The notes beneath the pieces are model-generated. The model did not search any database. It had not been told where the DNA came from and worked only from the letters and a program-made list of their open reading frames with translations. Positions 38,401-52,307 of a stretch of DNA of 64,000 nucleotides are shown in pieces. Each line of letters starts with the position of its first letter. Positions within the stretch are counted from its first letter, which is position 1. The stretch comes from Deltaproteobacteria bacterium (GTDB lineage Bacteria > Myxococcota_A > UBA9160 > PR03). The stretch lies in NCBI GenBank assembly GCA_035063765.1, contig JAPSFT010000013.1, positions 1 through 64,000 on the forward strand, in the 5' to 3' direction. Both the position numbers and the translations under genes were made by a program.

Positions 38401-39925
38401 GGCCGCGCGCGTGCGCGGCGAGCTCTTCGCGGCGCAGGGCGACGTCCAGCAGGCGGCGCGCAGCTTCCAGGAGGCCGGGCGCTTCGAGGACGCTGCGGCG
38501 CTGGCGTCGGAAGGCCCGGACCCGCGCAGCGCCGCGGAGCTCTACGAGCAGGCCGGCAACCTCGCCAAGGCCGCCGAGGCCTGGCGCGCGGCCGGCGACC
38601 CGGCGCGTGCCGCCGGTCTCTTCGAGGAGCTCTACCGCTACGAGGACGCGCTCGACTGCTGGCGGGCCGCCTCCAACACCGAGAAGTGCTGCGACCTCTC
38701 GGAGAAGCTCGCCCGCAACCTCGATGCCGCCGAGTGTGCCCTCGAGCTGGGCGACGCCGACCGCGCGATCCGCAACCTCCAGATGGTGGAGCTGCGCGAC
38801 GCCGGCTACGGCGAGGCGTGCCGGATGCTCGCCAGGGTCTTCGCGGAGCGCGGCGAGCCCGAGCTGGCGACCCAGAAGCTCGACGAGGCGGTGACCGCGG
38901 TGGGTGGCGCCGAGGCCGCACCGCTCGAGCTGCTCGCCGAGTACGGCGACGCGCTCGAGCGGTCGGGTCGCATCGCGGAGGCGATCACCGTCTGGGAGTC
39001 CGTGCGTGCCCGCGACTTCCACTGGCCCGAGGCCGCCACGCGCGTCGACTCGCTGCGCCAGGCGCTCGAGAGCGAGCGCACGGTCGCCGAGGCACGCAGC
39101 ACGATCGTGCGCGGCGCGGCGGCCGCCGAGAGCCGCTACGAGCTGCTCGGCGAGATCGGCCGCGGCGGGATGGGCGTCGTGTTCAAGGCGCGCGACCGCC
39201 GGCTCGGCCGGATCGTCGCGCTCAAGCGCCTGCCCGACAACCTGCGCAACCACCCGACCGCGGTGCGCCTCTTCCTGCGCGAGGCGCGCGCCGCCGCCGC
39301 GCTCAACCACCGCAACATCGTGACGCTCTACGACGCCGACCAGGAAGGCGACGCCTACTTCCTGACCATGGAGTTCCTCGACGGCTTCCCGCTCCACGAG
39401 ATCCTGGCCCGGCGCGGGAAGCTCTCGCCGCGCGACGTGGCGCGGATCGGGAGCCAGGCGGCGGTCGGCCTCGACTACGCCCACGCGCACGGGGTCGTCC
39501 ACCGCGACATCAAGACCTCGAACCTGTTCTTCACGCGCGACAAGGTCGTGAAGATCATGGACTTCGGGCTCGCCAAGATGGCCGAGGAGGTGCGCCGCGC
39601 CGCGACCGTGGTGGGCGGCACGCCCTACTACATGGCTCCCGAGCAGGCCGCCGGGCACGACGTCGACCACCGCGCCGACCTCTACGCCTTCGGGGTGACG
39701 CTCTACGAGCTGCTGGCGGGCGAGGTGCCGTTCCGGCAGGGCGACATCGCGCGCCACCATCGCGAGAGCCCCGTGCCCGATCCCCGCGAGAAGGCCCCCG
39801 AGGCGCCGGCGGAGCTGGTCGATCTGATCCACGGGCTCATGGCGAAGGCGCCCGAGGACCGGATCGGCTCGGCCGGCGAGGTGGCGGCCCGCCTGCAGCG
39901 CGCCGCGAAGCAGCTCGCCGGCTGA
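35417..39925 (+). CDS. Transmembrane TPR-containing Ser/Thr protein kinase, C-terminal kinase domain
   Basis: A 1502-residue protein. An N-terminal signal-like segment (residues 1-27) is followed by about 700 residues of TPR-like Ala/Leu/Glu-rich helices, then a membrane segment near 748-770 (SALAVAALALALAALPLL). A basic region, a beta domain and further TPR-like helices (AASFQEAG-type repeats) follow. The kinase domain is at about 1240-1500: glycine loop GEIGRGGMGVVF, Lys in VALKRL near 1269, HRDIKTSN near 1361, DFG near 1382, APE near 1408. All catalytic residues are present. If the first segment is a signal peptide, the TPR half is periplasmic, a receptor-like topology reversed from most bacterial kinases. 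sucA lies next, about 140 nt downstream. Confidence 0.85.
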   Translation: MASSTTRPAFLALAVAATLLAPAAARAVRSPALVLPPRADARYEWVALGATEWVRQRLVEAGIESSPEFVAADGLDASRGAALPDAATMAALAGVHGAARGWTLDLQVRGGEARVRLLLVDLQAGTLEASARAEAPLASLGEALAEATGALASQQGLAPPALDLPRITELDRYGRALAHLRAGRPAAAWLELGTRLTPTARALQERIAALGASETLPLGERARLAVARGQGERARLWLRAHLAETRDPALVLAAAESAEQISEWERALSLHERVLALDPTSGTAAVGRLRALLQLGRGAELAALLSTPLPPDADPGALGELTELPGLDAPALAQLHLRVAELAGARFDDELATAHLERASAADPALEPAAQRASALLHASMGESERARTAAERAVELGGADASVLEVLGSARRRAGDVAGAKQAFEQARALEPERPAVLVGLAEIAREENESGRAVELLREAVAVEPRAAGSRVLLAGLLRSMGDIDGALAALEGGDPRRRGAPLLREAAALRAERGETEAAATLLAEAALLEPDDATLLEERAAVEEQRGNAEAATRLRARAERQVGALAAEPDTLAAAADGAAQDALRTAASVADLVATFPTRLAGRERPIEVVALLAPAHDAASEGWLRWLRPRRIDGAAVERLLAAALAEQYVVVAPGEIPAELEAPDQQALRAGAGDPASVARLNAALASDAVATVRFADAGGGTLRIELRMGIGELEPTVRRFRNEARVPGAAAELSQWNPSALAVAALALALAALPLLRGWGGLVVGIQYASLGKGFFSIKLSRRSEPAGKGRQGGAGSEARFLRRMRMMGRYQRRMVGRETHFKLLPARRYYVQVHGLLQDPASEAVVGNYFEEQVVQVGRGKTARLDFDFRPKEAALELTILDGEAPVPRALVALRGQPASLRYARVGQALLPLAPGRHRILVGAGDRVLEREIGIEGFAPAALVIEIHDETALLFSGCAEAVEPYLQGQLAVAADALERAGQATAAARVRGELFAAQGDVQQAARSFQEAGRFEDAAALASEGPDPRSAAELYEQAGNLAKAAEAWRAAGDPARAAGLFEELYRYEDALDCWRAASNTEKCCDLSEKLARNLDAAECALELGDADRAIRNLQMVELRDAGYGEACRMLARVFAERGEPELATQKLDEAVTAVGGAEAAPLELLAEYGDALERSGRIAEAITVWESVRARDFHWPEAATRVDSLRQALESERTVAEARSTIVRGAAAAESRYELLGEIGRGGMGVVFKARDRRLGRIVALKRLPDNLRNHPTAVRLFLREARAAAALNHRNIVTLYDADQEGDAYFLTMEFLDGFPLHEILARRGKLSPRDVARIGSQAAVGLDYAHAHGVVHRDIKTSNLFFTRDKVVKIMDFGLAKMAEEVRRAATVVGGTPYYMAPEQAAGHDVDHRADLYAFGVTLYELLAGEVPFRQGDIARHHRESPVPDPREKAPEAPAELVDLIHGLMAKAPEDRIGSAGEVAARLQRAAKQLAG

Positions 39926-40067: not shown

Positions 40068-42926
40068 ATGGACCGCTCCGGCGCCGCGCCCGCCGCCGCC
40101 GACTCCGCACAGTACGAGTCCGAAGACCGCCCACCCGAACCCGCGCGTCTCGAGCCGATCCGCTTCGACGCGGGCAGCGCCGGCGCGCTCGCCGACTTCG
40201 GGGTGAACGCCGCCGCGGTCGAGGAGATCCAGGCGCGCTGGGCCGGCGATCCCGGCTCGGTCGACCCCGCCTGGGCCGCCGTCTTCGACGCCGAGGAGTC
40301 GGCCGCAGGTGCCCGCCTGGACCGCCGCACCGCCGAGAAGCACGCGCGCGTCCTGCGGCTGATCCACGCCTATCGCGCGCGCGGCCATCGCATCGCGGAG
40401 ATCGACCCGCTCGGCGGCCGCCGGGACTCGTACTTCCCCGAGCTCGACCCCGGCCACTACGGGCTCGGCCACGACGACCTCGATCGCCCGTTCCTGGCCG
40501 GCGATCTGCCGGGCGGCCCGGTGCAGCCGCTGCGCGACATCCTGGCGCTCCTGCGCGAGACCTACTGCGGCAAGGTCGGGGTCGAGTTCACCCACATCCA
40601 GGACCCCGGGCGCAAGGTCTGGGTGCAGCGCCGGCTCGAGGAGAGCCGCAACCGCAGCCTGTTCGGGAAGGACGACCGGCTGCGTATCCTCGAGCGGCTC
40701 GCCGAGGCGGAGCTCTTCGAGCGCTTCCTGCACACCAAGTTCCTGGGCCAGAAGCGCTTCTCGCTGGAGGGCGCCGAGACCCTGATCGCGCTGCTCGACG
40801 CGGTCGTCGAGGCGGCGCCCGGCCACGGCGTGCGCGAGCTCACGCTCGGCATGGCCCACCGCGGGCGGCTCAACGTGCTCTCGAACGTGCTCGGCAAGTC
40901 GCTCGAGTCGATCTTCGGCGAGTTCGAGGACATCGAGAACGTGGCGGCGCCCTTCGGCTCGGGCGACGTCAAGTACCACAAGGGCTTCTCGAACACCCGC
41001 CGCACGCGCTCGGGCCAGCGCGTCCACCTCTCGCTCACCGGCAACCCCTCCCATCTCGAGGCGGTGAACCCCGTCGTCGAGGGGCGCGCGCGCGCCAAGC
41101 AGGCGTCGATCGGCGATCGGCGCGGGCGCACGATCGTGCCCCTGTTGATCCACGGCGACGCCGCCTTCGCCGGCCAGGGCGTGGTGGCCGAGACGCTCAA
41201 CCTGTCGCGGCTCGCGGGCTACTCGACCGGCGGCACGATCCACGTGGTGGTGAACAACCAGATCGGCTTCACCGCCACGCCTGCCGAGACGCGCTCGACC
41301 CTCTACTGCACCGACGTCGCCAAGATGCTCCAGGCGCCCGTCTTCCACGTGAACGGCGACGACCCGGAGGCGGTGGTGCACGTGGCGCTCTTCGCGCTCG
41401 AGTACCGGCAGCGTTTCGGCGAGGACGTGGTGATCGACCTGGTCTGCTACCGGCGCCACGGCCACAACGAGGGCGACGAGCCGAGCTTCACCCAGCCGCT
41501 GCTCTACGAGAAGATCCGCAGCACGCAGCCGGTCCGGCACCTCTACCAGGAGTCGCTGCTCGCCGCCGGCGTGATCACGCGCGAGGACGCCGAGCGCATG
41601 GAGAAGCAGGAGAACGAGCAGCTCCTGCACGCGCTCGAGACGATCAAGACGCGGCCGCCCGGGCCCGACGAGCCCTACGAGCCCGGCGGGCCGTGGACCG
41701 GCTTCTCGCGCCGGGCGCCGCGCGAGCCGCTCGAGACCGGTGTCGCGATCGAGCGGCTCCAGCAGATCGGCGAGCGCCTCGCGGAGGTGCCGCCCGGCTT
41801 CGAGCTGCACCGCAAGCTCGTGCCCTTCCTCGAGAAGCGGCGCAAGGCGATCGCCGAGGGCGCCGAGCTCGACTGGGCCTTCGCCGAGGCGCTGGCCTTC
41901 GGCTCGCTGCTGCTCGAGGGCTACGCGGTGCGGCTCTCCGGGCAGGATTCCTCGCGCGGCACCTTCAGCCACCGCCACGCCGTGCTGGTCGACCAGAGCA
42001 GCGAAGCCGAGTACGCGCCGCTCGCGCACCTCGCGAACGGCCAGGGCCGCTTCGAGGTCTACGACAGCCTGCTCTCCGAGGCGGCGGTGCTCGGCTTCGA
42101 GTACGGCTACGCCTCGACCGACCCGATGACCCTGGTGCTCTGGGAGGCGCAGTTCGGGGACTTCGCGAACGGCGCCCAGGTCATCATCGACCAGTTCGTC
42201 GCGTCGGCCGGGGTCAAGTGGGGCCGGATCAACGGCCTCGTCCTGCTGCTGCCCCACGGCTACGAAGGACAGGGCCCCGAGCACTCGAGCGGGCGCATCG
42301 AGCGCTACCTCCAGCTCTGCGCCGAGGACAACCTGCAGGTGGTGAACTGCACCACCCCCGCGCAGTACTTCCACGTGCTGCGCCGCCAGATGCGCCGCAA
42401 CTACCGCGCGCCGCTGGTCGTCTTCACGCCGAAGAGCCTGCTGCGCGCGCCGCGTGCCACCTCGAAGCCGGCCGCGCTCGCCGACGGCCGCTTCCAGACC
42501 GTGCTCGCCGACCCGCTCGCGCGCCCGGAGCAGGTGCGCCGGGTCCTGCTCTGCTCGGGCAAGATCTACTACGAGCTCCTCGAGGAGCGCGACAAGCGCT
42601 TCGGCGAGGGCCAGCCGGGCGACGTCGCGATCCTGCGCCTCGAGCAGCTCTATCCCTTCGACGCCGAGGCGCTGGCCGGCGCGCTGGCGCCCCTCGCCGC
42701 GAGCGCCGAGCACTTCACCTGGGTGCAGGAGGAGCCGCGCAACATGGGCGCGTGGAGCTTCGTGCAGGAGCGGATCGAGCCCCTGCTCCCGGCCGGTCGC
42801 GCGCTCGGCTATGCCGGGCGCCTCGCCTACGCCGCCCCGGCCGGCGGCTCGATGCGCGTGCACCGCCGGCGCCAGTCGGCGCTCATCGCCCAGGCCTTCG
42901 GCGACGACGTCTCGCCGGCGCCCTGA
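40068..42926 (+). CDS. sucA: 2-oxoglutarate dehydrogenase E1 component
   Basis: A 952-residue thiamine-diphosphate enzyme of the TCA cycle that decarboxylates 2-oxoglutarate and passes succinyl to the E2 lipoyl group. Landmarks are LTLGMAHRGRLNVLSNVLGK, NPSHLEAVNPVVEG, HGDAAFAGQGVVAETLNLS and VVVNNQIGFTA with the ThDP/Mg site, and CYRRHGHNEGDEPSFTQPL. The length matches the family. The start is uncertain: ATG 40068 has a distant GAGG, while GTG 40026 lies 12 nt after TAACCT and could be leaderless. No E2 or E3 gene adjoins it, unlike the usual sucAB order. The neighbour upstream is the TPR kinase. Confidence 0.93.
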   Translation: MDRSGAAPAAADSAQYESEDRPPEPARLEPIRFDAGSAGALADFGVNAAAVEEIQARWAGDPGSVDPAWAAVFDAEESAAGARLDRRTAEKHARVLRLIHAYRARGHRIAEIDPLGGRRDSYFPELDPGHYGLGHDDLDRPFLAGDLPGGPVQPLRDILALLRETYCGKVGVEFTHIQDPGRKVWVQRRLEESRNRSLFGKDDRLRILERLAEAELFERFLHTKFLGQKRFSLEGAETLIALLDAVVEAAPGHGVRELTLGMAHRGRLNVLSNVLGKSLESIFGEFEDIENVAAPFGSGDVKYHKGFSNTRRTRSGQRVHLSLTGNPSHLEAVNPVVEGRARAKQASIGDRRGRTIVPLLIHGDAAFAGQGVVAETLNLSRLAGYSTGGTIHVVVNNQIGFTATPAETRSTLYCTDVAKMLQAPVFHVNGDDPEAVVHVALFALEYRQRFGEDVVIDLVCYRRHGHNEGDEPSFTQPLLYEKIRSTQPVRHLYQESLLAAGVITREDAERMEKQENEQLLHALETIKTRPPGPDEPYEPGGPWTGFSRRAPREPLETGVAIERLQQIGERLAEVPPGFELHRKLVPFLEKRRKAIAEGAELDWAFAEALAFGSLLLEGYAVRLSGQDSSRGTFSHRHAVLVDQSSEAEYAPLAHLANGQGRFEVYDSLLSEAAVLGFEYGYASTDPMTLVLWEAQFGDFANGAQVIIDQFVASAGVKWGRINGLVLLLPHGYEGQGPEHSSGRIERYLQLCAEDNLQVVNCTTPAQYFHVLRRQMRRNYRAPLVVFTPKSLLRAPRATSKPAALADGRFQTVLADPLARPEQVRRVLLCSGKIYYELLEERDKRFGEGQPGDVAILRLEQLYPFDAEALAGALAPLAASAEHFTWVQEEPRNMGAWSFVQERIEPLLPAGRALGYAGRLAYAAPAGGSMRVHRRRQSALIAQAFGDDVSPAP

Positions 42927-42931
42927 AGAGG

Positions 42932-42973
42932 GCGGGCACCCCCACCAGCGGACTTCGGGGGGCGGGGGCCCGC
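42932..42973. terminator. Possible terminator hairpin after sucA
   Basis: GCGGGC near 42932 pairs with GCCCGC near 42968, and an inner CCCCC pairs with GGGGG, in the 73-nt gap between sucA and the convergent hypothetical gene. No T-run follows. The position supports termination; the structure alone is weak evidence in such G+C-rich DNA. Confidence 0.3.
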
Positions 42974-42999
42974 GTGACCGCCGATCGCGGTCCGTGCCG

Positions 43000-44211
43000 T
43001 CAGGGCTGCGCGGGTGCGGCTGCCCCGCTCCGGGCCGCGGCGGGCGGCGCCTCCGTCCCGCCGGGCCGGGGCGGGACCACGACCGCGACCCCGCGCGCCA
43101 GGTCCTCGCGCATCAGCTCCACCATGTGGAGCTCGTGGGCGTCGACGTGGGATGCGTTCGTGAACACGTCGAGCGGGTAGCGCCTCGTCTTGTGGCGCCC
43201 GGGCAGCAGCAGCAGCTCCTCGCGGTCCGGGAAGCGGCCGTCGAGGAAGCGGTAGCCGCGCACCTCGCCGATCGTGTAGGGCCCCGGCACGCCGGCGTCG
43301 CGCAGGATCTTGCCGTAGACGTCGAGCGGGACGGTCTGGGCGCCGGGCGCGAGCTCGCCCTTGAAGCTCGCGAAGGCCAGCGGCTCGCCGTCGGCTCCGT
43401 AGACGTTGGCGTCGAAGCGGTAGAAGCCGGCCTGGTCGAGATCGATGCCGACCCCGATGCGCAGGCTCCCCTCGTAGAGGCTGTCGTGGACGCTCGCGAA
43501 GCGGCCGGGGATGCGGTCGGCGGGCGTCGAGAAGATCCGCAGCGCGTCCTCGTGCTCGCGGCCGGGCGCCCACGCGAAGCGCACGGTGAGCAGGATCGCC
43601 CCGTGGTGGTCCGCGAAGCGGTGGAGCGGGAGCTCCGTCACGAGCCGATCGCCTTCGGGACGGAACACGAGGGGGTACGGCTCGCCGACGGGGCCCGACC
43701 GCCCCTCGCGCACGGCGCTCGCCGCGACGACCTCGACCGGCACCGCCGCCTCCCCCTGCCGGACCTCGAGCCAGGCGTGCACGGTGTCGGGGCCGACGTA
43801 GGCCCAGTGGTCGGCGGTGAAGAGCCAGGTCACCTGCTCGCCGGGCGGTGCGCCGGCGGTGTCCGGGATCGGACGCGGGCGCTCGTGACGGCGGTTCGGG
43901 AAGAGCAGGTCCTCGTGCGCGCGCGTGAGGCGCCCGGAGCTCGCGGGATAGGGCGTCGCCTCGAGGAAGCGGCGGATCGGCTCGGGGAGCGGCTCGGGCG
44001 CCGGGGCCGGGCGCCTTCTCGCCCGCCCCGGTGCCGTCGCGCCAGCACCGGATGCGGGCGGCGGCGGGGCGGCCGACACGGCCAGCGGCGCGCTCAGGCG
44101 TGCGTGCGTGCGCGAACGCCAGGACCAGACGCCGAGGCCGGTCGCCAGCGCTGCGAGCAGGACGAGCGCGCCGGCGCGCCGGCGCGTCCGTCCTGCCTCG
44201 CGTCCGCCCAA
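43000..44211 (-). CDS. Membrane-anchored hypothetical protein
   Basis: A 403-residue protein I do not recognise. An Arg-rich N-terminus and one hydrophobic segment (AGALVLLAALATGLGVWSW, residues 13-31) suggest an inner-membrane anchor with a periplasmic body. A Pro/Ala-rich linker leads to a mostly beta region with AHEDLLFPNRRHERPRPI and FDANVYGADGEPLAFASFKG. The C-terminus is again Pro/Ala-rich. The start is a TTG at 44211 with GGTGAGG just upstream, 4 nt after the stop of the somatomedin-B protein, so the two are a unit. The second beta part resembles an Ig-like domain by strand pattern only. Confidence 0.7.
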   Translation of the reverse strand: MGGREAGRTRRRAGALVLLAALATGLGVWSWRSRTHARLSAPLAVSAAPPPPASGAGATAPGRARRRPAPAPEPLPEPIRRFLEATPYPASSGRLTRAHEDLLFPNRRHERPRPIPDTAGAPPGEQVTWLFTADHWAYVGPDTVHAWLEVRQGEAAVPVEVVAASAVREGRSGPVGEPYPLVFRPEGDRLVTELPLHRFADHHGAILLTVRFAWAPGREHEDALRIFSTPADRIPGRFASVHDSLYEGSLRIGVGIDLDQAGFYRFDANVYGADGEPLAFASFKGELAPGAQTVPLDVYGKILRDAGVPGPYTIGEVRGYRFLDGRFPDREELLLLPGRHKTRRYPLDVFTNASHVDAHELHMVELMREDLARGVAVVVPPRPGGTEAPPAAARSGAAAPAQP

Positions 44212-44215
44212 ATCC

Positions 44216-45178
44216 TCACCACCCCATGTTGGTGATGAACTTGGTCTTCATCTCGTAGTGGTCGAGGTCGTAGCCGCTGCAGGTCCAGGCGGCCGCGTGG
44301 TTCGTCCACTTGGGCGTCGAGCACATGTTGCTGGTCGACGCCGTGCTGGTCCGCGCGCCCGCCGAGTGGAAGGCCACCGCACCGTCGTCCTCGCCCGGCA
44401 GCAGCCACGAGGAGTACCACCAGCCGTCGTAGCCCCCGACGTGGTAGACGGTCTTGCCGTTGGTGTCGTTGTGGTTGTAGGCGTTGCGCACCTCGCTGGT
44501 GCCGAGGTGGCCGGCGTAGTCGCAGGGGCCGAAGACGTCGGCCAGGAGGTTTCCCGACAGCTCGCTGCCGCCGCCCGCGCCGCCACTCGTGCCCACCCAG
44601 AACACGTTCCAGTTGGTCGAGGAGTTGGCGAAGCGGTGGCCCATGACGGCGTCGCCGCCGCTGTAGTTGAGCACGTAGCAGGCGTTCGAGCCGGTGCAGC
44701 ACTGGTCGAGGTAGCGGCCGAGCGTGTAGCTCGAGTCGGAGAGCCCCGAGTGGTTGGTCTGCACGGCGCGCACGTCGATCGAGGTATAGCCGCTGGCGGC
44801 GGCATAGCGGTCGTTCCAGCCCTGCGAGCACATGCCCCCGAGGTGCAGGATGTAGCGGCGGTTCGCGTTCGCCACGCAACCGGTGTTGTTGTTGCAGACG
44901 GGCTGGTAGTCGGCGCAGCAGTCGCCCTGGCTCGCACAGGCCGCGTCGCACCAGCAGCCGTTGCCGTTGTCGCCCGCGCCGTAGCCGCCACAGGCGCTGA
45001 CGCAGGTACCCGCGTTGTCGCCCCCCTTGCCGGCCTGCGCGGGCCCGGCGGCGATCATCGCCATCGTGACCGCCAGCACCGCGCACGCGGGAGCCAGCCA
45101 GGCGAGCCCCTTCCCGTTCGGGTCCGGGCGCTCTTCGGGACGCACGGGTCCCCGGATGCCGCGACGAACACAGCCCAT
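44216..45178 (-). CDS. Secreted protein with somatomedin-B domain
   Basis: A 320-residue exported protein. After a signal region (residues 24-49, ending AQA), residues 59-95 carry eight cysteines in the somatomedin-B pattern: TCVSAC, GCWCDAAC, GDCCADYQPVC. This disulfide knot is best known from animal vitronectin and ENPP proteins. The rest (residues 100-320) includes YILHLGGMCSQGWNDRY, CYVLNYSGGDAVMGHRFA and VAFHSAGART, which may be a lipase-like alpha/beta-hydrolase fold with a Y-S-G-G elbow. The ATG at 45178 has GGAGGAGGGG upstream; the earlier frame to 45235 crosses the promoter. Asn/Ser/Thr-rich composition differs from its Ala-rich neighbours. Confidence 0.75.
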   Translation of the reverse strand: MGCVRRGIRGPVRPEERPDPNGKGLAWLAPACAVLAVTMAMIAAGPAQAGKGGDNAGTCVSACGGYGAGDNGNGCWCDAACASQGDCCADYQPVCNNNTGCVANANRRYILHLGGMCSQGWNDRYAAASGYTSIDVRAVQTNHSGLSDSSYTLGRYLDQCCTGSNACYVLNYSGGDAVMGHRFANSSTNWNVFWVGTSGGAGGGSELSGNLLADVFGPCDYAGHLGTSEVRNAYNHNDTNGKTVYHVGGYDGWWYSSWLLPGEDDGAVAFHSAGARTSTASTSNMCSTPKWTNHAAAWTCSGYDLDHYEMKTKFITNMGW

Positions 45179-45194
45179 GGACTTCCCCTCCTCC

Positions 45195-45210
45195 GGTGCA
45201 CCCCTGCACC
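45195..45210. promoter_or_regulatory. Perfect hairpin in 5' leader of the somatomedin-B gene
   Basis: GGTGCACCCCTGCACC forms a 6-bp stem with a 4-nt loop on either strand. It lies between a -10-like TAGGAT (45227-45222, minus) and the Shine-Dalgarno sequence of the gene starting at 45178. It could be an operator or a leader RNA hairpin. The function is inference. Confidence 0.4.
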
Positions 45211-45244
45211 GCGGGGCCATCCTACGCGCGGCCACGCACCGGAA

Positions 45245-45808
45245 TCAACGGCTTCGTGTCGCACCCGGGGGATCGGAGGTGCGCGCAGGGCAGGCGCGCC
45301 GGGCCAGCTCGCGCTGCCACGCTTCACGGGGCGGCGTGGTGCACAACACCTCGAGGTCGGAGCGGCGCGCGGGCGCGTCGGCGAGCGAGCCGTGCAGCAC
45401 GAGGGCACCGCCGGCGTCGTGCGCGCCGGGCCCGCGCACGAACCCGTAGGCGGGGTGCACGAAGCCGTACGCGGGAGCGTAGACGCGGGTCACCCACATG
45501 CGGGGGTCGGGCGCCCACTGCGCCGGGAAGGCGAAGCGCCCGCGGGCGTCGCTGGTCGCGAAGCGCGCGTGCCGCGTGGGCTGGGGCGCGCCGCCCACGC
45601 CGGCCCCGTGCCACCACTCGATCACCGTCGCCCCCGCGATCGGCGCTCCCGTCCCGGCGTCGGCCACGCGCCCCTCGACGGCCGGCAGCCGGCACGTGCC
45701 CCCTCCCGGCACGCAGCCGGCGAACGCGAGCGCCACCACCGCCAGCGCCTGCGCCCCGCGCGAACGCTGGCAGCGGGGACGCGAAGGCGCGGCTCGTGCA
45801 CGTTGCAC
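45245..45808 (-). CDS. Lipoprotein with carboxypeptidase-regulatory-like domain
   Basis: A 187-residue putative lipoprotein: a hydrophobic stretch ends AFAGC at Cys32. The mature part starts with EGRVADAGTGAPIAGATVIEWW, the classic opening of a carboxypeptidase-regulatory-like beta-sandwich, and continues with ARFATSDARGRFAFPAQW. Such domains often mediate surface interactions. The GTG at 45808 is preferred to the ATG at 45820, because that ATG lies inside a TATGAT -10 box (45821-45816) and the GTG is 7 nt downstream, implying a leaderless mRNA. It is on the same strand as, and just upstream of, the somatomedin-B unit. Confidence 0.7.
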   Translation of the reverse strand: MQRARAAPSRPRCQRSRGAQALAVVALAFAGCVPGGGTCRLPAVEGRVADAGTGAPIAGATVIEWWHGAGVGGAPQPTRHARFATSDARGRFAFPAQWAPDPRMWVTRVYAPAYGFVHPAYGFVRGPGAHDAGGALVLHGSLADAPARRSDLEVLCTTPPREAWQRELARRACPARTSDPPGATRSR

Positions 45809-45849
45809 GGCGGCGATCATACGCCGGAGGGAGGTTCGGTGCGCGCGCC

Positions 45850-45909
45850 CCGGGCCGCGCGGGCCCGGCTGTGCGTGCTGCATGCCCCGTGCAGCGGCCG
45901 GCCGGCCGC
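45850..45909. other. Cluster of three strong hairpins
   Basis: In the 164-nt divergent gap between the lipoprotein and wax-ester synthase genes lie three structures: CCGGGCC/GGCCCGG (45850-45868, 5-nt loop), GCTGCA/TGCAGC (45877-45895, 7-nt loop) and the 16-nt palindrome GCGGCCGGCCGGCCGC (45894-45909). They would lie in the leader of the synthase mRNA if its promoter is far upstream, or block extension from either side. No conserved riboswitch pattern is recognised. Confidence 0.45.
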
Positions 45910-45972
45910 GCGTGGACCGGGTCCGGAACGTCCGCCATCCTAGGTCCGGGGGGTGGGTCGAAGGGTTGCAGG

Positions 45973-47391
45973 GTGACGCACTACGACCGGCTCTCGGCCC
46001 AGGATCGCAGCTTCCTCGACCTCGAAGGCCCCACGACGCACATGCACGTGGCCGGCGCCTTCCTGTTCGAGCGGGGGGCGCTGGCGACGCCGCAGGGCGG
46101 CGTCGACATCGACACGATCCGTGCCTACGTCGAGGCGCGCCTGTACCGGATCCCGCGCTACCGCCAGCGCCTCGCCTGGATCCCGATCGAGAGCCACCCG
46201 GTCTGGGTGGACGACGACCGCTTCAACGTCCACTACCACGTGCGCCACACCGCGCTGCCCGCGCCGGGGGACGAGCGCCAGCTCAAGCGCCTGTGCGCGC
46301 GCGTCCTGTCCCAGCCGCTCGACCGCGATCGGCCGCTCTGGGAGATGTGGGTCGTCGAGGGGCTCGAGCACGATCGCTTCGCGCTCGTGTGCAAGACGCA
46401 CCACTGCATGGTCGACGGCATCTCGGGCGTGGACCTGCTGGCGGTGCTCCTGTCACCGACGCCCGACAAGGAGTTCGAGCCCGGCCCCGACTGGTACCCG
46501 AACCCCCCGCCGGGCAGGCTCACGCTGCTGCGCGACGCCGCGTGGCGGCGCGCCACGACGCCCTTCGCGCTGGCCGGCGCGACGGTCGCGGCGCTGCGCC
46601 AGCCCGAGGTCACCTGGGAGCGCGCGCGAGAGATCGCGGGCGGGCTCGCGCAGACCCTGACGGCGGCGCTCTCCCCGGCCGCCGATACGCCCTTCAACCG
46701 CCCGATCGGCCCACACCGGCGCTTCGACTGGGTGGGCTTCGACCTCGCCGAGGTGAAGCGGGTCAAGGACCGGCTGGGTGGCACCGTGAACGACGTCGTG
46801 CTGGCGACCGTGGCCGGCGCGGCCTCGCGCTTCCTCGAGCAGCGCGGCATCCCGCTGCGCCGGCAGCGGGAGATGGACTTCCGCGCCTTCTGTCCGGTGT
46901 CGGTGCGCAGCGCCGAGGAGCGCGGCGCGCTCGGCAACCGCGTCTCCTCGATCGTGGCGCGCCTGCCGATCGCCGAGCGCGACCCGGCGCAGTGCCTGGC
47001 GGCGGTGCACGAGGTCACGGCGGACCTGAAGGAGTCGAAGCAGGCGCTCGGGGCCGAGGTGCTGACGTCGGTGTCGGAGTGGACGGCCCCCACGCTGGCG
47101 GCGCTGGCCGCGCGGCTGGCGTTTGCGAACCGGCTCTCGAACCTGATCGTGACCAACGTGCCGGGCCCGCAGGTCCCGCTCTACCTGCTCGGGGCGCGCA
47201 TGCTCGAGACCTACCCGATGGCGCCGCTCTTCGAGGGCCAGGGGTTGGGCATCGCGCTGTTCAGCTACTGCGGCGGGCTGTACTGGGGCTTCAACGCGGA
47301 CTGGGAGCAGTTCCCGGACCTGCACGACTTCGTGGTGGCGATCGACGCCTCCTTCCGCGAGCTGGGCGAGGCGGCCGACGCCGCCGACTAG
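45973..47391 (+). CDS. Wax-ester synthase / diacylglycerol acyltransferase
   Basis: A 472-residue WS/DGAT-family enzyme that makes wax esters or triacylglycerol from acyl-CoA at the membrane surface. The catalytic HHxxxDG motif is KTHHCMVDGISGVD near residue 143-149. GGTVNDVVLATVAGA and SNLIVTNVPGPQVPLYLLGA are the conserved second-domain blocks. MHVAGAFLFE lies near the N-terminus as usual. The GTG at 45973 has only AAGGG at a distance, and CATCCT near 45935 is a possible -10 box. It lies 83 nt before glgC, so lipid and glycogen storage genes adjoin. Specificity for alcohols or diacylglycerol cannot be read. Confidence 0.92.
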   Translation: MTHYDRLSAQDRSFLDLEGPTTHMHVAGAFLFERGALATPQGGVDIDTIRAYVEARLYRIPRYRQRLAWIPIESHPVWVDDDRFNVHYHVRHTALPAPGDERQLKRLCARVLSQPLDRDRPLWEMWVVEGLEHDRFALVCKTHHCMVDGISGVDLLAVLLSPTPDKEFEPGPDWYPNPPPGRLTLLRDAAWRRATTPFALAGATVAALRQPEVTWERAREIAGGLAQTLTAALSPAADTPFNRPIGPHRRFDWVGFDLAEVKRVKDRLGGTVNDVVLATVAGAASRFLEQRGIPLRRQREMDFRAFCPVSVRSAEERGALGNRVSSIVARLPIAERDPAQCLAAVHEVTADLKESKQALGAEVLTSVSEWTAPTLAALAARLAFANRLSNLIVTNVPGPQVPLYLLGARMLETYPMAPLFEGQGLGIALFSYCGGLYWGFNADWEQFPDLHDFVVAIDASFRELGEAADAAD

Positions 47392-47474
47392 CGCGGAGCG
47401 GGCTGTCGTCCGGCGGACGGTGCTGGCCGCCTTGCTCCGTCGGGACCGCGCGTTATCCACCCGAGGGAGGCCCG

Positions 47475-48731
47475 ATGCGAGACACGCTCGCGCTCGTGCT
47501 CGCTGGCGGCGAAGGCCGCCGGCTCGACCCGCTGACCCGCGAGCGCAGCAAGCCCGCCATGCACTTCGGCGGCCGCTACCGGCTGATCGACTTCGTGCTC
47601 TCGAACCTGGTCAACAGCGGCTTCCAGCGCATCAAGGTGCTGACCCAGTACCGCGCGACCTCGCTCGTGCGCCACCTCGCGCGCGGCTGGTCGCTGGCCT
47701 CGACGGTCGTCGACGAGTTCATCGAGCCGGTGCCCGCGGCGATGAACATCGGCCCCACCTGGTTCCGCGGCACCGCCGACGCGATCTGGCAGAACCTCGA
47801 CCTGCTGCGCGAGTCGCGGCCGGCCGACGTGCTCGTGTTCGGCGCCGACCACGTCTACAAGATGGACATCGGGCTGATGGCGGAGCACCACCGCGCGGTA
47901 GGCGCCGACCTCACCGTCGCCGTGCTCTCGGTGCCCCGCGCGGAGGCGGCTGGCGCCTTCGGCTGCATCGAGGTCGACGATTCGGGCTGGGTGCGCGGCT
48001 TCGTCGAGAAGCCCGCCGACCCTCCGCCGATCCCCGGTGACCCCGAGCACACCCTGGTGTCGATGGGCAACTACGTGTTCCGCACCCGCAGCCTGATCGA
48101 GGAGCTGCGCCGCAACGCCGGGCGCAGCGAGAGCACCCACGATTTCGGGCGCGACATCCTGACCAGCGTCTACGGGCGTGCCAAGGTCGCAGCCTACGAC
48201 TTCACCTCCCAGCTCTGCCCCGGCGAGAGCGAGCGCAGCCGCGGCTACTGGCGCGACGTCGGCACCATCGACGCGTTCTTCGAGGCCAACATGGATCTCG
48301 TGTCGGTGGAGCCGCGCCTCAACCTCTACAACGAGCTGTGGCCGATCCGGGGAGTGCAGTCGGGCGGGGGGCCCTGCAAGTTCGTGTTCGCGGACGAGGC
48401 GCGCAACCGCGTCGGTGCCGCCGTGGACTCGATCGTCGGCACGGGCTCGATCGTGTCGGGTGGCTACGTCGAGAACACCGTGGTCTCCAACCGCGTGCGC
48501 GTGAACAGCTACAGCCACGTCTCGGAGAGCGTGCTCTTCCCGAACGTCGACGTCGGGCGCGGCGCGCGCCTGCGCCGCTGCGTGGTCGACAAGGGCGTCG
48601 CGGTCCCGGCCGGCGAGGAGATCGGCTACGACGCCGAGCGCGACCGCGCGCGCTTCACGGTGAGCGAGGGCGGCGTCGTCGTGGTGACCCGCAAGGACTT
48701 CGGCCAGCGCGACGAGTTCGACGTCGAGTGA
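47475..48731 (+). CDS. glgC: Glucose-1-phosphate adenylyltransferase
   Basis: A 418-residue ADP-glucose pyrophosphorylase, the committed step of glycogen synthesis from ATP and glucose-1-phosphate. LVLAGGEGRRLDPLTRERSK is the nucleotide-binding start, and FGADHVYKMD is the catalytic loop. GFVEKPADPP marks the sugar site, and the left-handed beta-helix C-terminus (SYSHVSESVLFPNVDVGRGA) bears allosteric surfaces. The ATG at 47475 has GGGAGG at 4 nt. TTGCTC (47432) and TTATCC (47453) are a weak candidate promoter. It heads the operon with glgA, whose ATG overlaps its stop by one base. Confidence 0.94.
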   Translation: MRDTLALVLAGGEGRRLDPLTRERSKPAMHFGGRYRLIDFVLSNLVNSGFQRIKVLTQYRATSLVRHLARGWSLASTVVDEFIEPVPAAMNIGPTWFRGTADAIWQNLDLLRESRPADVLVFGADHVYKMDIGLMAEHHRAVGADLTVAVLSVPRAEAAGAFGCIEVDDSGWVRGFVEKPADPPPIPGDPEHTLVSMGNYVFRTRSLIEELRRNAGRSESTHDFGRDILTSVYGRAKVAAYDFTSQLCPGESERSRGYWRDVGTIDAFFEANMDLVSVEPRLNLYNELWPIRGVQSGGGPCKFVFADEARNRVGAAVDSIVGTGSIVSGGYVENTVVSNRVRVNSYSHVSESVLFPNVDVGRGARLRRCVVDKGVAVPAGEEIGYDAERDRARFTVSEGGVVVVTRKDFGQRDEFDVE

Positions 48732-50188
48732 TGCCGGCCAGGAAGGGTCACCGCCTGCGCCTGCACTTCGCGGCCGCCGAGCTGGCGCCGCTCGCGCTCT
48801 CGGGCGGCCTCGGCGAGGCGGTCGCCGGGCTGGCCGCGGCGCTCGCCGCACGCGGGCACGAGCTGACCTGCCTCCTGCCGGCGCATCGCCGGGCGCTCGA
48901 GAGCCCGGCCCTCCCGCCGCTCACGGAGGCGGGCGCGGTGCGGCTCGCGGTGCCCGGCGGCGCGGGCGCGCTCGCCGGACGCTGGCTCGAGGGCCGGCTC
49001 GGCGCACTGCGCGTTCTGCTCCTCGACCTGCCCGCCCTCTACGACCGGCCGCGCCTCTACGACGGGACCGCCGGCGCCGGCGAGGCGCTGCGCTTCGTCG
49101 CCTTTGCGCGCGCGGTGGCGGAACGGGCCGCCGCCGAGACGCCCGAGGTGCTGGTGGCCCACGACTGGCACGCGGCGCTCGCGCTCGCCTGCCTGCGCAC
49201 CCTCCACGACTTCGGCGCCGCCCGCGCGATCGGCTGCGTGCAGGTGGTGCACAACAGCGCCTACCAGGGACGCTTCGCGGCCTCGGCGATGGCGCTGACC
49301 GGCCTCCCGCCGGAGCTCTTCCATCCCGATGCGCTCGAGTTCTGGGGCGACCTGTGCCTCCTGAAGGGCGGTCTCGTGTGGGCCGACCGCATCGTCACGG
49401 TGTCGCCCACCCACGCCGGGGAGCTCCAGACCGCCGCCTTCGGCGGCGGGCTCGAGGGCCTCTACCGCTGGCGGGCCCGGCGGCTGGTCGGGATCGCGAA
49501 CGGGATCGACGTCGAGCGACACGATCCGGCGACGGACCCGGCGCTGGCGGCCCGCTACGACGCGCACTACCCGAAGCCGAAGGCCGCCTGCCGCGAGGCG
49601 CTGCTCGGCGCGCTCGGCCTGGCGACACCCGCACCCGGGCGCCTGCTCGGCGCGATCGGGCGGCTGGCCGAGCAGAAGGGCTGGGACGTGCTCGCCGACG
49701 CGATCCCCCGGCTCGTCGAGCAGGGCGCCTCGCTGGTGCTGCTCGGCGACGGCGACGCGCTCCTTGCCGAGCGGCTGCGCGCGGCAGCGGGCCGGTTCCC
49801 GGCGCGGGTGGCGGTCGTGATCGGCTGGGACGAGGGCCTGGCCCGCCGGATCTACGCGGGCGCCGACGGCATGCTCGTGCCCTCGCGCTTCGAGCCGTGC
49901 GGGCTCGTCCAGCTCGTGGCGCAGCGCTACGGGACGCTGCCCGTGGCGCATCGCGTCGGCGGGCTCGCCGACACGATCGAGGACGGGGTGAGCGGCGTCC
50001 TGTTCGAGCCGCTCACGCCGACGGCGATCGCCGGCGCGGCCGAGCGCGCGGCGCTCCTGGTCCAGGAGCAGGGCGCCGACAAGGTCGCACGCCGGCTGCT
50101 CGCGCTCGACGTCTCGTGGCGGGCGCCGGCCGCGGCGTACGAGACGCTCCTCGCCGCGGTCGCGCGCGAAGCCCGGCGGCGGCTCTGA
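48731..50188 (+). CDS. glgA: Glycogen synthase (GT5), with altered KxGG motif
   Basis: A 485-residue ADP-glucose-dependent glycogen synthase extending alpha-1,4-glucan. The C-terminal donor site is normal: GRLAEQKGWDVL, LVPSRFEPCGLVQLVAQRYG, HRVGGLADTIED. The N-terminal motif that is KTGGLADV in E. coli reads LSGGLGEAV here, so Leu23 replaces the conserved Lys that contacts ADP-glucose phosphate. The ATG at 48731 shares its A with the glgC TGA stop. glgX follows after 4 nt. Either the enzyme tolerates the change or its donor or activity differs. Confidence 0.88.
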   Translation: MPARKGHRLRLHFAAAELAPLALSGGLGEAVAGLAAALAARGHELTCLLPAHRRALESPALPPLTEAGAVRLAVPGGAGALAGRWLEGRLGALRVLLLDLPALYDRPRLYDGTAGAGEALRFVAFARAVAERAAAETPEVLVAHDWHAALALACLRTLHDFGAARAIGCVQVVHNSAYQGRFAASAMALTGLPPELFHPDALEFWGDLCLLKGGLVWADRIVTVSPTHAGELQTAAFGGGLEGLYRWRARRLVGIANGIDVERHDPATDPALAARYDAHYPKPKAACREALLGALGLATPAPGRLLGAIGRLAEQKGWDVLADAIPRLVEQGASLVLLGDGDALLAERLRAAAGRFPARVAVVIGWDEGLARRIYAGADGMLVPSRFEPCGLVQLVAQRYGTLPVAHRVGGLADTIEDGVSGVLFEPLTPTAIAGAAERAALLVQEQGADKVARRLLALDVSWRAPAAAYETLLAAVAREARRRL

Positions 50189-50192
50189 GCGG

Positions 50193-52307
50193 ATGCGCGT
50201 CCTCCCGGGCGCACCGGCGCCGCTCGGCGCCCGCTTCCGCCACGACGAGCAGGGCGCGGGCGTCGACTTCGCGGTCGCGTCCTCGCAGGCGACGCGGATC
50301 GAGGTGTGCCTCTTCGACACCCCCGGCGCGGCCGTCGAGTCGGCACGCGTCGCGCTGCCCGAGCGCAGCGGCGACGTCTGGCACGGGCGCCTGCTCGGCC
50401 TGCGCCCCGGGCAGCTCTACGGCCTGCGCGCCCACGGGCCCTGGCGGCCCGAGGCGGGGCAGCGCTGCAACCCCGCCAAGCTGCTCGTCGATCCCTACGC
50501 CCGCGCCCTCTCGGGCCCCGTCGTCTGGGACGAAGCGCTGCGCGGCACGCGCCCCGGGTCGCCCGCCGAGCCCGATCCTCGCGACACCGCCCGGTGGATG
50601 CCGAAGGGCGTGCTCCTCGACGACGGCTTCGACTGGGAAGGTGACGCGCCGCCGGGCACGCCCTGGAGCCGCACCGTCCTCTACGAGTGCCACGTGAAGG
50701 GCATGACCCAGTGCCATCCGGGCGTGCCGGCCGAGCAGCGCGGGCGCTTCCTCGGGCTCGCCGCCGGGCCGGTGGTCGAGCACCTGCTCGCGCTCGGTGC
50801 CACCGCCGTCGAGCTGCTCCCGGTGCAGCACCACGCGATCGACGCGCACCTGGCCGCACTCGGGCTCCCGAACTACTGGGGCTACATGACGCTCGGCTTC
50901 TTCGCGCCCGACCCGCGCTTCGCGAGCGGCGCGCTCGGCCAGCAGGTCTCCGAGTTCCGCACGATGGTGAAGCGCCTGCACCGGGCGGGCCTCGAGGTGA
51001 TCCTCGACGTCGTCTACAACCACACCCCGGAAGGTGGGGCCGACGGGCCCACCCTCTCGCTGCGCGGGCTCGACGACGCGGGCTACTACCGGCACCGTCC
51101 CGACGCGCCCGGCGAGTACCTCGACTTCACGGGCTGCGGGAACAGCCTCGACACCGGCCGCCCGCGCGCGCTCCAGCTCGTGCTCGACAGCCTGCGCTAC
51201 TGGGTCGAGGAGATGCACGTCGACGGCTTCCGCTTCGACCTCGCGACCGTGCTCGCGCGCGACGGCCACCAGTTCGAGCCCTTCGGGCGTTTCTTCGAGT
51301 TCGTGCGCCAGGACCCGGTGCTGGCCGGCGTCAAGCTGATCGCCGAGCCCTGGGACCTCGGGCCCGGCGGCTGGCAGCTCGGTCGCTTCCCCGTCGGCTG
51401 GTCGGAGTGGAACGACCGCTTCCGCGACGCGACCCGCCGCTTCTGGCGCGGCGACGGCGGCCAGCTCCCCGAGCTGGCGTCGCGGATCGCCGGCTCGAGC
51501 GACTTCTTCGGCGCCGGCGGCCGTCCGCCGCAGGCCAGCGTCAACTTCGTCGCCGCCCACGACGGCCTGACCCTGCGCGACCTGGTCAGCTACGCGCGCA
51601 AGCACAACGAGGCCAACGGGGAGGGCAACCGCGACGGCGGTCACGACGAGAGCGCCAACTGGGGCGTCGAGGGCGAGAGCGCCTCGCTGCGGGTGCGCAA
51701 GCTGCGCGCGCGGGTGCGCCGCAACCTGTTCGCGACCCTGGCGCTCGCCCAGGGCGTCCCGATGATCTCGCACGGCGACGAGCTCGGCCGCACCCAGGGC
51801 GGCAACAACAACGCCTACTGCATCGACGACGAGCGGACCTGGATCGACTGGGAGGGCGCCGACGCCGAGATGCTCGCCTTCGCGCGCGCGGCGCTCGCGC
51901 TCCGCCGCGACAACGCCGTGTTCCGCCGCCGGCGCTTCTTCCGCGGCGAGGCGGCGGTGCCCGGCCTCCCCGGCGACGTGGCCTGGCTGCGCCCGGAGGG
52001 CGGACCCATGCAGGAGGCGGACTGGCACGATGCGAGCCGGCGCGCCCTCGGGCTCCTGATCCCCGCGGCGTCGGCGGATCCCGCCGACGAGCGCGGCCGC
52101 CCGCAGGCTGCCCGCACCGTGCTCCTCCTGCTCAACGGCGGGCCGCGCACGCAGGGCTTCTTGCTCCCGGATCCAGGAGGGGAGGGCGTCTGGTGCGAGC
52201 TGCTCGACAGCGCCTGCGCGCAGGGGAGCCGCTCGTTCCGCGCAGGCGAGCGGCTGCCGGTCGCGGCGCACGGACTGCTCCTCCTGGCCGCCGGGGCGGG
52301 CGGGTGA
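50193..52307 (+). CDS. glgX: Glycogen debranching enzyme
   Basis: A 704-residue GH13 debranching enzyme that hydrolyses alpha-1,6 branches in phosphorylase-limit glycogen. An N-terminal CBM48-like domain (DFAVASSQATRIEVCLFD) precedes the barrel. Conserved regions are LEVILDVVYNHTPEG, the nucleophile Asp in VDGFRFDLATVL, the acid/base Glu in KLIAEPWDLG and the Asp in VNFVAAHDG. The full family length is present. The ATG at 50193 follows the glgA stop by 4 nt; GGAT/GAG is weak, so coupling is likely. Its TGA stop overlaps the malQ GTG. Confidence 0.93.
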   Translation: MRVLPGAPAPLGARFRHDEQGAGVDFAVASSQATRIEVCLFDTPGAAVESARVALPERSGDVWHGRLLGLRPGQLYGLRAHGPWRPEAGQRCNPAKLLVDPYARALSGPVVWDEALRGTRPGSPAEPDPRDTARWMPKGVLLDDGFDWEGDAPPGTPWSRTVLYECHVKGMTQCHPGVPAEQRGRFLGLAAGPVVEHLLALGATAVELLPVQHHAIDAHLAALGLPNYWGYMTLGFFAPDPRFASGALGQQVSEFRTMVKRLHRAGLEVILDVVYNHTPEGGADGPTLSLRGLDDAGYYRHRPDAPGEYLDFTGCGNSLDTGRPRALQLVLDSLRYWVEEMHVDGFRFDLATVLARDGHQFEPFGRFFEFVRQDPVLAGVKLIAEPWDLGPGGWQLGRFPVGWSEWNDRFRDATRRFWRGDGGQLPELASRIAGSSDFFGAGGRPPQASVNFVAAHDGLTLRDLVSYARKHNEANGEGNRDGGHDESANWGVEGESASLRVRKLRARVRRNLFATLALAQGVPMISHGDELGRTQGGNNNAYCIDDERTWIDWEGADAEMLAFARAALALRRDNAVFRRRRFFRGEAAVPGLPGDVAWLRPEGGPMQEADWHDASRRALGLLIPAASADPADERGRPQAARTVLLLLNGGPRTQGFLLPDPGGEGVWCELLDSACAQGSRSFRAGERLPVAAHGLLLLAAGAGG

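What the first reader, a model, noticed from the sequence alone, without database searches (positions are those of the whole stretch)
44216..45178. Bacterial secreted protein with a somatomedin-B domain fused to a possible hydrolase
Residues 59-95 carry eight Cys in the exact somatomedin-B spacing with GDCCADY, a domain mainly known from animal extracellular proteins. The C-terminal part resembles a lipase-like fold with a Y-S-G-G elbow, and composition differs from neighbours. It may be an effector or adhesin, possibly horizontally acquired. It is paired with an unknown membrane-anchored protein.
Basis: partly seen in the sequence, partly recalled or inferred. Interest (0 to 1): 0.58.

Follow-up and report, generated by a model that had tools for sequence, protein, structure and literature searches.

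The report
Somatomedin-B lipase-like enzyme with membrane partner
A little-known bacterium carries a secreted enzyme bearing a small cysteine-rich domain best known from animal blood proteins, and the enzyme's gene almost always sits next to one for a membrane-tethered partner that may help the enzyme fold.

Summary
The ORF is on the minus strand, 44216-45178 (320 aa). Residues 58-97 pass the Pfam somatomedin-B (SMB) cut-off (28.4 vs 23.1 bits). The C-terminal 217 aa match no Pfam family, but Ser173, His236, Asp265 and His307 are invariant in 24 of 24 diverse relatives and the elbow grades from NYSGG into canonical A/G-H-S-x-G: a lipase-like serine hydrolase, inferred. The neighbour 43000-44211 is its partner: membrane helix, disordered linker, two beta-sandwiches with the DUF4785 (NttD) fold, adjacent in 16 of 18 distant loci. 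An upstream lipoprotein completes a three-gene cassette absent at this site in a congener. Best explanation: a secreted hydrolase with an SMB add-on and a dedicated membrane-tethered maturation partner, working like lipase-specific foldases; the foldase role is not shown. Animal-to-bacterium transfer of this gene is not supported: SMB occurs in 81 of 377 genomes of the phylum, the nearest outside SMBs are bacterial, codon use is native. The interest lies in the hydrolase-partner pair and in SMB as a recurrent add-on of bacterial secreted enzymes.

The parts
44216..45178 (-). SMB-hydrolase, 320 aa; ATG at 45178 preceded by GGAGGAGG; signal-peptide-like residues 1-49, SMB 58-97, hydrolase domain 104-320
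44888..45007 (-). somatomedin-B domain (residues 58-97)
   Evidence: Pfam PF01033 28.4 bits; 33.0 bits in the genome search at these coordinates
44219..44869 (-). lipase-like hydrolase domain (residues 104-320); Ser173, His236, Asp265, His307 invariant in 24 of 24
   Evidence: link to lipase A and Abhydrolase_6 only through two bridging relatives
43000..44211 (-). membrane-tethered partner, 403 aa (TTG start 5 nt after the hydrolase stop): TM helix, disordered linker, two beta-sandwiches, DUF4785-like fold
   Evidence: AlphaFold2 pLDDT 83.2; 4kh9 Z 13.9; co-occurrence
45245..45883 (-). small lipoprotein-like protein with carboxypeptidase-regulatory-like domain, upstream member of the cassette
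   Evidence: PF13620 24.6 bits, below its cut-off 32.3; lipobox-like Cys in relatives whose N-terminus is in the alignment; upstream of the hydrolase in 12 of 13 class loci with upstream DNA
42927..45972 (.). 3046-bp stretch with the three genes between the OGDH E1 gene and the WS/DGAT gene; not at this site in congener G021 or in G024

Best explanation
A secreted, disulfide-rich serine hydrolase of the alpha/beta-hydrolase type (lipase or esterase activity, triad Ser173-Asp265-His307) carries an N-terminal SMB domain as a small disulfide-locked protein-binding or retention module. It is made with a dedicated partner: an inner-membrane protein whose N-terminal helix and flexible linker tether two Ig-like domains in the periplasm. 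The partner most likely binds the newly exported hydrolase and helps it fold, or holds it until release, as lipase-specific foldases (Lif/LipH) do, but with an unrelated beta fold. In the window's class a lipoprotein is added and the three genes form one cassette. Shown: SMB domain, gene pairing, predicted topology and fold of the partner, the insertion. Inferred: catalysis, foldase role, role of SMB.
For: SMB: above the Pfam cut-off, Cys frame conserved. Hydrolase: Ser173, His236, Asp265, His307 invariant in 24 of 24 relatives; elbow grades NYSGG, xYSNG, xHSAG, AHSMG/GHSTG. With the two canonical relatives included, the profile's 12 best of 15 PDB rows are lipase A type, best E 0.011. hhalign to Abhydrolase_6 is in register at the elbow, E 7.8e-5 with and 0.074 without the bridges, against 0.5 and 0.75 for a Rossmann control. 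One bridge (L013/L027) sits next to a partner homologue, independent support that it belongs. Pairing: partner adjacent to the hydrolase in 16 of 18 distant loci, in hydrolase-then-partner order in 15 of those 16, and in 14 of 14 class loci with downstream DNA. Topology: 27 of 27 partner homologues have a hydrophobic N-terminal segment (mean hydropathy 1.26-3.29) behind basic residues; model TM 8-39, residues 38-70 disordered, then beta-sandwiches. PMC13381987 (passages) describes the known steric foldases this way: periplasmic domain on a TM helix and an unstructured linker (commonly 30-55 residues in LipH homologues), one operon with the lipase.
Against: No profile finds the window's own C-terminal domain (0 Pfam families); without the two bridging relatives the PDB search finds nothing. 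The AlphaFold2 model of the SMB-hydrolase is poor, pLDDT 40, so its fold is not shown. The partner has no match to a lipase chaperone family and its fold is beta, not helical. Its best structural match, NttD of Legionella, is listed as a secreted protein, not as a foldase. Two of 18 loci have a hydrolase relative without the partner. Pro+Ala content of the linker is low in the three L042-L044 rows (0.09-0.16).
Confidence: 0.48

Rival explanations
1. Effector-immunity pair: the hydrolase acts on other bacteria, and the membrane-tethered partner protects the producer by binding it in the periplasm.
For: Close adjacency; within the class the partner evolves faster (37-54% identity) than the hydrolase (78-86%); patchy distribution, 13 of 90 genomes of the class.
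Against: Signal-peptide-like N-terminus; no PADLOC or PHROGs hit; no partner seen without hydrolase away from a contig edge except a weak hit in G002 (E 9.6e-4); the hydrolase is unusually conserved, 52-54% even to L042-L044, unlike fast-diversifying toxins.
Confidence: 0.2
2. Surface-retention complex: partner and lipoprotein display the hydrolase on the producer's envelope, SMB being the docking module.
For: Membrane anchor plus lipoprotein in the class cassette; SMBs are protein-binding modules in animals (recalled).
Against: The partner is kept in L042-L044 and most phylum loci where the hydrolase has no SMB, so SMB cannot be what the partner binds there.
Confidence: 0.2
3. The C-terminal domain is a catalytically dead alpha/beta fold that serves as a binding protein.
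For: Non-canonical N-Y-S-G-G elbow; no profile match of the window sequence itself.
Against: Ser, Asp and His invariant in 24 of 24, which binding alone would not require.
Confidence: 0.1

Closest known systems
Somatomedin-B domain (PF01033) of ENPP1-3 and of EndoU
   Same: Same eight-Cys frame; also N-terminal to a secreted hydrolase
   Different: Catalytic domains unrelated (phosphodiesterase, endoribonuclease); second loop longer here
Bacillus subtilis lipase A (lipase class 2) and Abhydrolase_6
   Same: Position of the nucleophile elbow and order Ser-Asp-His, reached through bridging relatives
   Different: The window sequence has no profile hit; N-Y-S-G-G elbow; conserved Cys161, Cys167, Cys286 and invariant His236
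Lipase-specific foldase Lif/LipH
   Same: Gene next to the lipase-like gene, TM helix, unstructured linker, periplasmic domain
   Different: Two beta-sandwiches instead of a helical clamp; no sequence match; function not tested
DUF4785 protein NttD (lpg0956, PDB 4kh9)
   Same: Fold of the partner, Z 13.9 over 219 residues, next row 9.6; weak DUF4785_3rd matches in 8 of 14 partner homologues
   Different: NttD is listed as type II-secreted (PMC6617341, one passage seen); the window partner is membrane-anchored and paired with a hydrolase

Membership tests
Somatomedin-B domain (PF01033) | Profile score above the curated cut-off | tested here: met
   28.4 bits against 23.1
Somatomedin-B domain (PF01033) | Eight Cys in the SMB order | tested here: met
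   Cys 59, 63, 75, 77, 81, 87, 88, 95; in 9 of 9 rows that reach the domain, of 11 rows
Somatomedin-B domain (PF01033) | SMB disulfide connectivity and fold | tested here: inconclusive
   AlphaFold2 pLDDT 29-57 in this region
alpha/beta-hydrolase, lipase class 2 type | Family profile matches the protein | tested here: not met
   0 Pfam families for the window's C-terminal domain at E up to 5
alpha/beta-hydrolase, lipase class 2 type | Ser-Asp-His in order, invariant | tested here: met
   S173, D265, H307 in 24 of 24
alpha/beta-hydrolase, lipase class 2 type | Fold | tested here: inconclusive
   Model pLDDT 40.2; Foldseek best E 0.51
Lipase-specific foldase (Lif) | Encoded with a lipase, TM helix plus flexible linker | tested here: met
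   description of the family
Lipase-specific foldase (Lif) | Lif profile and helical chaperone fold | tested here: not met
   0 Pfam families at E up to 1; model is beta-sandwich
Lipase-specific foldase (Lif) | Activates its lipase | not testable with these tools
   needs an experiment
DUF4785 | Fold of 4kh9 | tested here: met
   Z 13.9, rmsd 4.5, 219 aligned
DUF4785 | Profile match of the window's partner | tested here: not met
   0 families for the window protein; 8 of 14 members of the alignment match PF20943 weakly, best 4e-4

The most novel reading that the evidence does not exclude
The hydrolase and its tethered two-Ig partner are a new class of enzyme-plus-steric-foldase system, spread over more than one phylum, that uses a beta-sandwich chaperone in place of the helical Lif clamp; and Myxococcota use SMB domains as a general add-on of secreted enzymes, as animals do.
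Probability: 0.3. Interest if true: 0.75.

Novelty: new variant of a known kind. Interest (0 to 1): 0.5.

Why it matters
Few membrane-tethered steric foldases are known (discussion passage of PMC13381987); an unrelated fold doing the same job would show that the strategy arose more than once, and this pair makes that testable. Separately, SMB is usually discussed as an animal domain (one green alga protein is also mentioned in PMC5082852, one passage seen); here it is common in one bacterial phylum and fused to nuclease, arginine deiminase, CAP and lipase-like domains, which makes its origin a testable question. Searches of the held paper library for SMB with bacterial terms listed nothing on bacterial SMB proteins (one search showed 15 of 1,569 papers, none holding the word somatomedin); that library is incomplete.

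Tried and rejected
Animal origin of the gene: rejected on SMB neighbours and codon use. Which kingdom had SMB first was not settled: domains of about 35 residues do not support a tree, and only four animal SMBs were compared.

VirB1 lytic transglycosylase: weak NCBIfam hit, E 0.06-0.11, 12-13 bits against a cut-off of 212; rejected. Relatives in phage, plasmid and viral-contig collections: none found. Anti-phage families: none.

Fold search with the poor SMB-hydrolase model: several alpha/beta-hydrolases among 50 rows but best E 0.51; not used as evidence. No Lif structure was listed; that is no evidence of absence.

Borders of the insert: no direct or inverted repeat of 9 or more bases between the flanks tested (42901-43010 and 45871-45960), one tRNA in the window, far away, no Rfam match. 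In some searches the WS/DGAT query was in the wrong frame (start 45954); its place is right, its identity values are not used; the right frame is 45973-47388. L136's gap of 1010 nt comes, I think, from a second weak domain row; the two ORFs are adjacent.

Identities compared with OGDH E1: SMB-hydrolase over 9 genomes, Spearman 0.09; over 7, leaving out the two partial genes (G084, G045), 0.86; partner over 9, 0.70. G051 gave no OGDH match and is not in these counts. No clear sign of recent transfer, from few points.

Full report
Observation. The ORF at 44216-45178 is on the minus strand and encodes 320 aa. ATG at 45178 follows GGAGGAGG; a basic stretch and a hydrophobic segment ending near residue 49 look like a signal peptide (sequence reading). 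Pfam finds one family, Somatomedin_B, residues 58-97, 28.4 bits against a cut-off of 23.1. The Cys frame C-x3-C-x11-C-x-C-x3-C-x5-CC-x6-C is complete in the 9 alignment rows that reach it, of 11 rows. The best PDB matches of that stretch are EndoU and ENPP SMB domains.

Relatives. In the class 13 of 90 genomes match: the window's own, 10 others with the SMB-hydrolase or pieces of it at 76-84% identity, one with SMB alone (G059) and one with a distant hydrolase (G083). The named-genome scan gave 16 loci: 13 from Deltaproteobacteria/Myxococcota-type, Proteobacteria-titled or unnamed bacterial MAGs, and 3 (L042-L044) with 51-53% identity to the hydrolase domain and no SMB. L043 and L044 are titled Spirochaetota and Spirochaetia; L042, an uncultured bacterium, shares their gene neighbourhood. 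In a phylum sample 82 of 377 genomes match the alignment profile, many through SMB alone. That the phylum is Myxococcota is inferred from the record titles.

Catalytic domain. In 24 aligned relatives Ser173, His236, Asp265 and His307 never change, and the elbow passes from NYSGG through xYSNG and xHSAG to AHSMG and GHSTG. Profiles reach known hydrolases only with the two canonical relatives L013 and L069: lipase A types take the 12 best of 15 PDB rows, best E 0.011; without the two there is no row. hhalign against Abhydrolase_6 aligns the elbow, E 7.8e-5 with and 0.074 without the bridges; the short-chain dehydrogenase control gave 0.5 and 0.75 (13 of 15 Abhydrolase loci gave a sequence). The gene of L013 (in L027) lies next to a partner homologue, which supports its membership independently. 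AlphaFold2 with 16 rows failed, pLDDT 40.

Partner. The protein at 43000-44211 starts 5 nt after the hydrolase stop. Its model is good, pLDDT 83.2: helix 8-39, disorder to about residue 70, then beta-sandwich domains. The best solved match is 4kh9, Legionella NttD, DUF4785, Z 13.9 over 219 residues; the next entries, alpha-2-macroglobulins, have Z 9.6. All 27 partner homologues examined have a hydrophobic N-terminal segment behind basic residues (several rows are trimmed, start codons not checked). The partner lies beside the hydrolase in 16 of 18 loci outside the class cassette set: 12 of 14 phylum loci (misses L133 and L135), L027, and L042-L044; in 15 of 16 the order is hydrolase then partner, L123 being the exception. 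In class loci with downstream DNA it follows in 14 of 14 (G077 counted through its second contig). Partner homologues without a visible hydrolase are near contig edges (G020, G076), apart from a weak hit in G002. A search of the whole phylum sample with the partner profile failed twice, so its frequency without hydrolase outside the class is not known.

Third gene. A small lipoprotein-like protein with a carboxypeptidase-regulatory-like domain (24.6 bits, below the cut-off 32.3) precedes the hydrolase in 12 of 13 class loci with upstream DNA, the miss being L035, and was not found in the 19 loci scanned outside that set. No other gene family was shared as widely around the cassette; the other large clusters are overlapping frames of the same genes.

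Insertion. Of five family relatives fetched, G021 (same genus) and G024 have the OGDH E1 gene followed within about 130-150 nt by the WS/DGAT gene, where the window has 3046 bp with exactly these three genes. G025 has the same order with a longer gap that I did not analyse; G022 and G023 have other neighbours there, and G023 carries the cassette elsewhere (C278). So the unit was gained or lost as a block; no repeats mark the borders. Codon use is native: GC3 0.947. OGDH identities to nine cassette genomes are 65-75% (G051 gave no match), the hydrolase 76-84%, the partner 42-57%: the hydrolase is strongly constrained and transfer, if any, is not recent.

SMB in the phylum. PF01033 passes its cut-off in 81 of 377 genomes, with up to 19 matches each, best 50.6 bits, and in 0 of 14 control genomes. 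Of 10 such proteins scanned (out of 30 loci that one search gave), all 10 hit SMB and four carry another domain above cut-off: SNase nuclease, CAP, arginine deiminase (PAD, E 1.5e-54), collagen repeats. Outside its own family the window's SMB is up to 59% identical to bacterial SMBs and 32-47% to four animal ones. In G226 an SMB (21.2 bits, below the cut-off; the genome's one match passes) also precedes the hydrolase domain.

Mechanism. PMC13381987 (search listing, abstract and passages) describes known steric foldases as periplasmic domains tethered by a TM helix and an unstructured linker and encoded with the lipase. The partner has that layout with a different fold. I therefore favour a dedicated maturation partner, with immunity and surface retention as rivals. 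SMB is not needed for the pairing, since SMB-less hydrolases keep the partner; it is an add-on, probably for binding something outside the cell (inference).

Verdict. A real SMB domain on a lipase-like enzyme, not an animal import on this evidence, inside a near-obligate two-gene unit of wide distribution. New variant of a known kind.

Noticed in passing
phylum survey; loci L081-L110: SMB is an expanded domain family in the phylum: 81 of 377 genomes, often tandem copies, up to 19 matches per genome in one family.
   Followed up: partly
L110:1-2043 (-): Bacterial protein with SMB and a protein-arginine deiminase domain (PAD, E 1.5e-54); SMB is also joined to SNase (L083) and CAP (L100).
   Followed up: no
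L094:235-2823 (-): Bacterial protein with two SMB domains and collagen repeats.
   Followed up: no
L012/L026 (G059): A different SMB protein in the window's order, 316 aa, without the hydrolase domain.
   Followed up: no
L135/L069 (G158): Hydrolase relative with canonical GHSTG elbow in a 1184-aa frame with BNR-like repeats, without the partner.
   Followed up: no
window 45973-52304 (+): WS/DGAT gene followed by ADP-glucose pyrophosphorylase-, glycogen synthase- and amylase-family genes: a wax-ester and glycogen storage run by reading.
   Followed up: no
window 35417-39922 (+): 1502-aa frame with TPR repeats and a C-terminal protein kinase domain.
   Followed up: no
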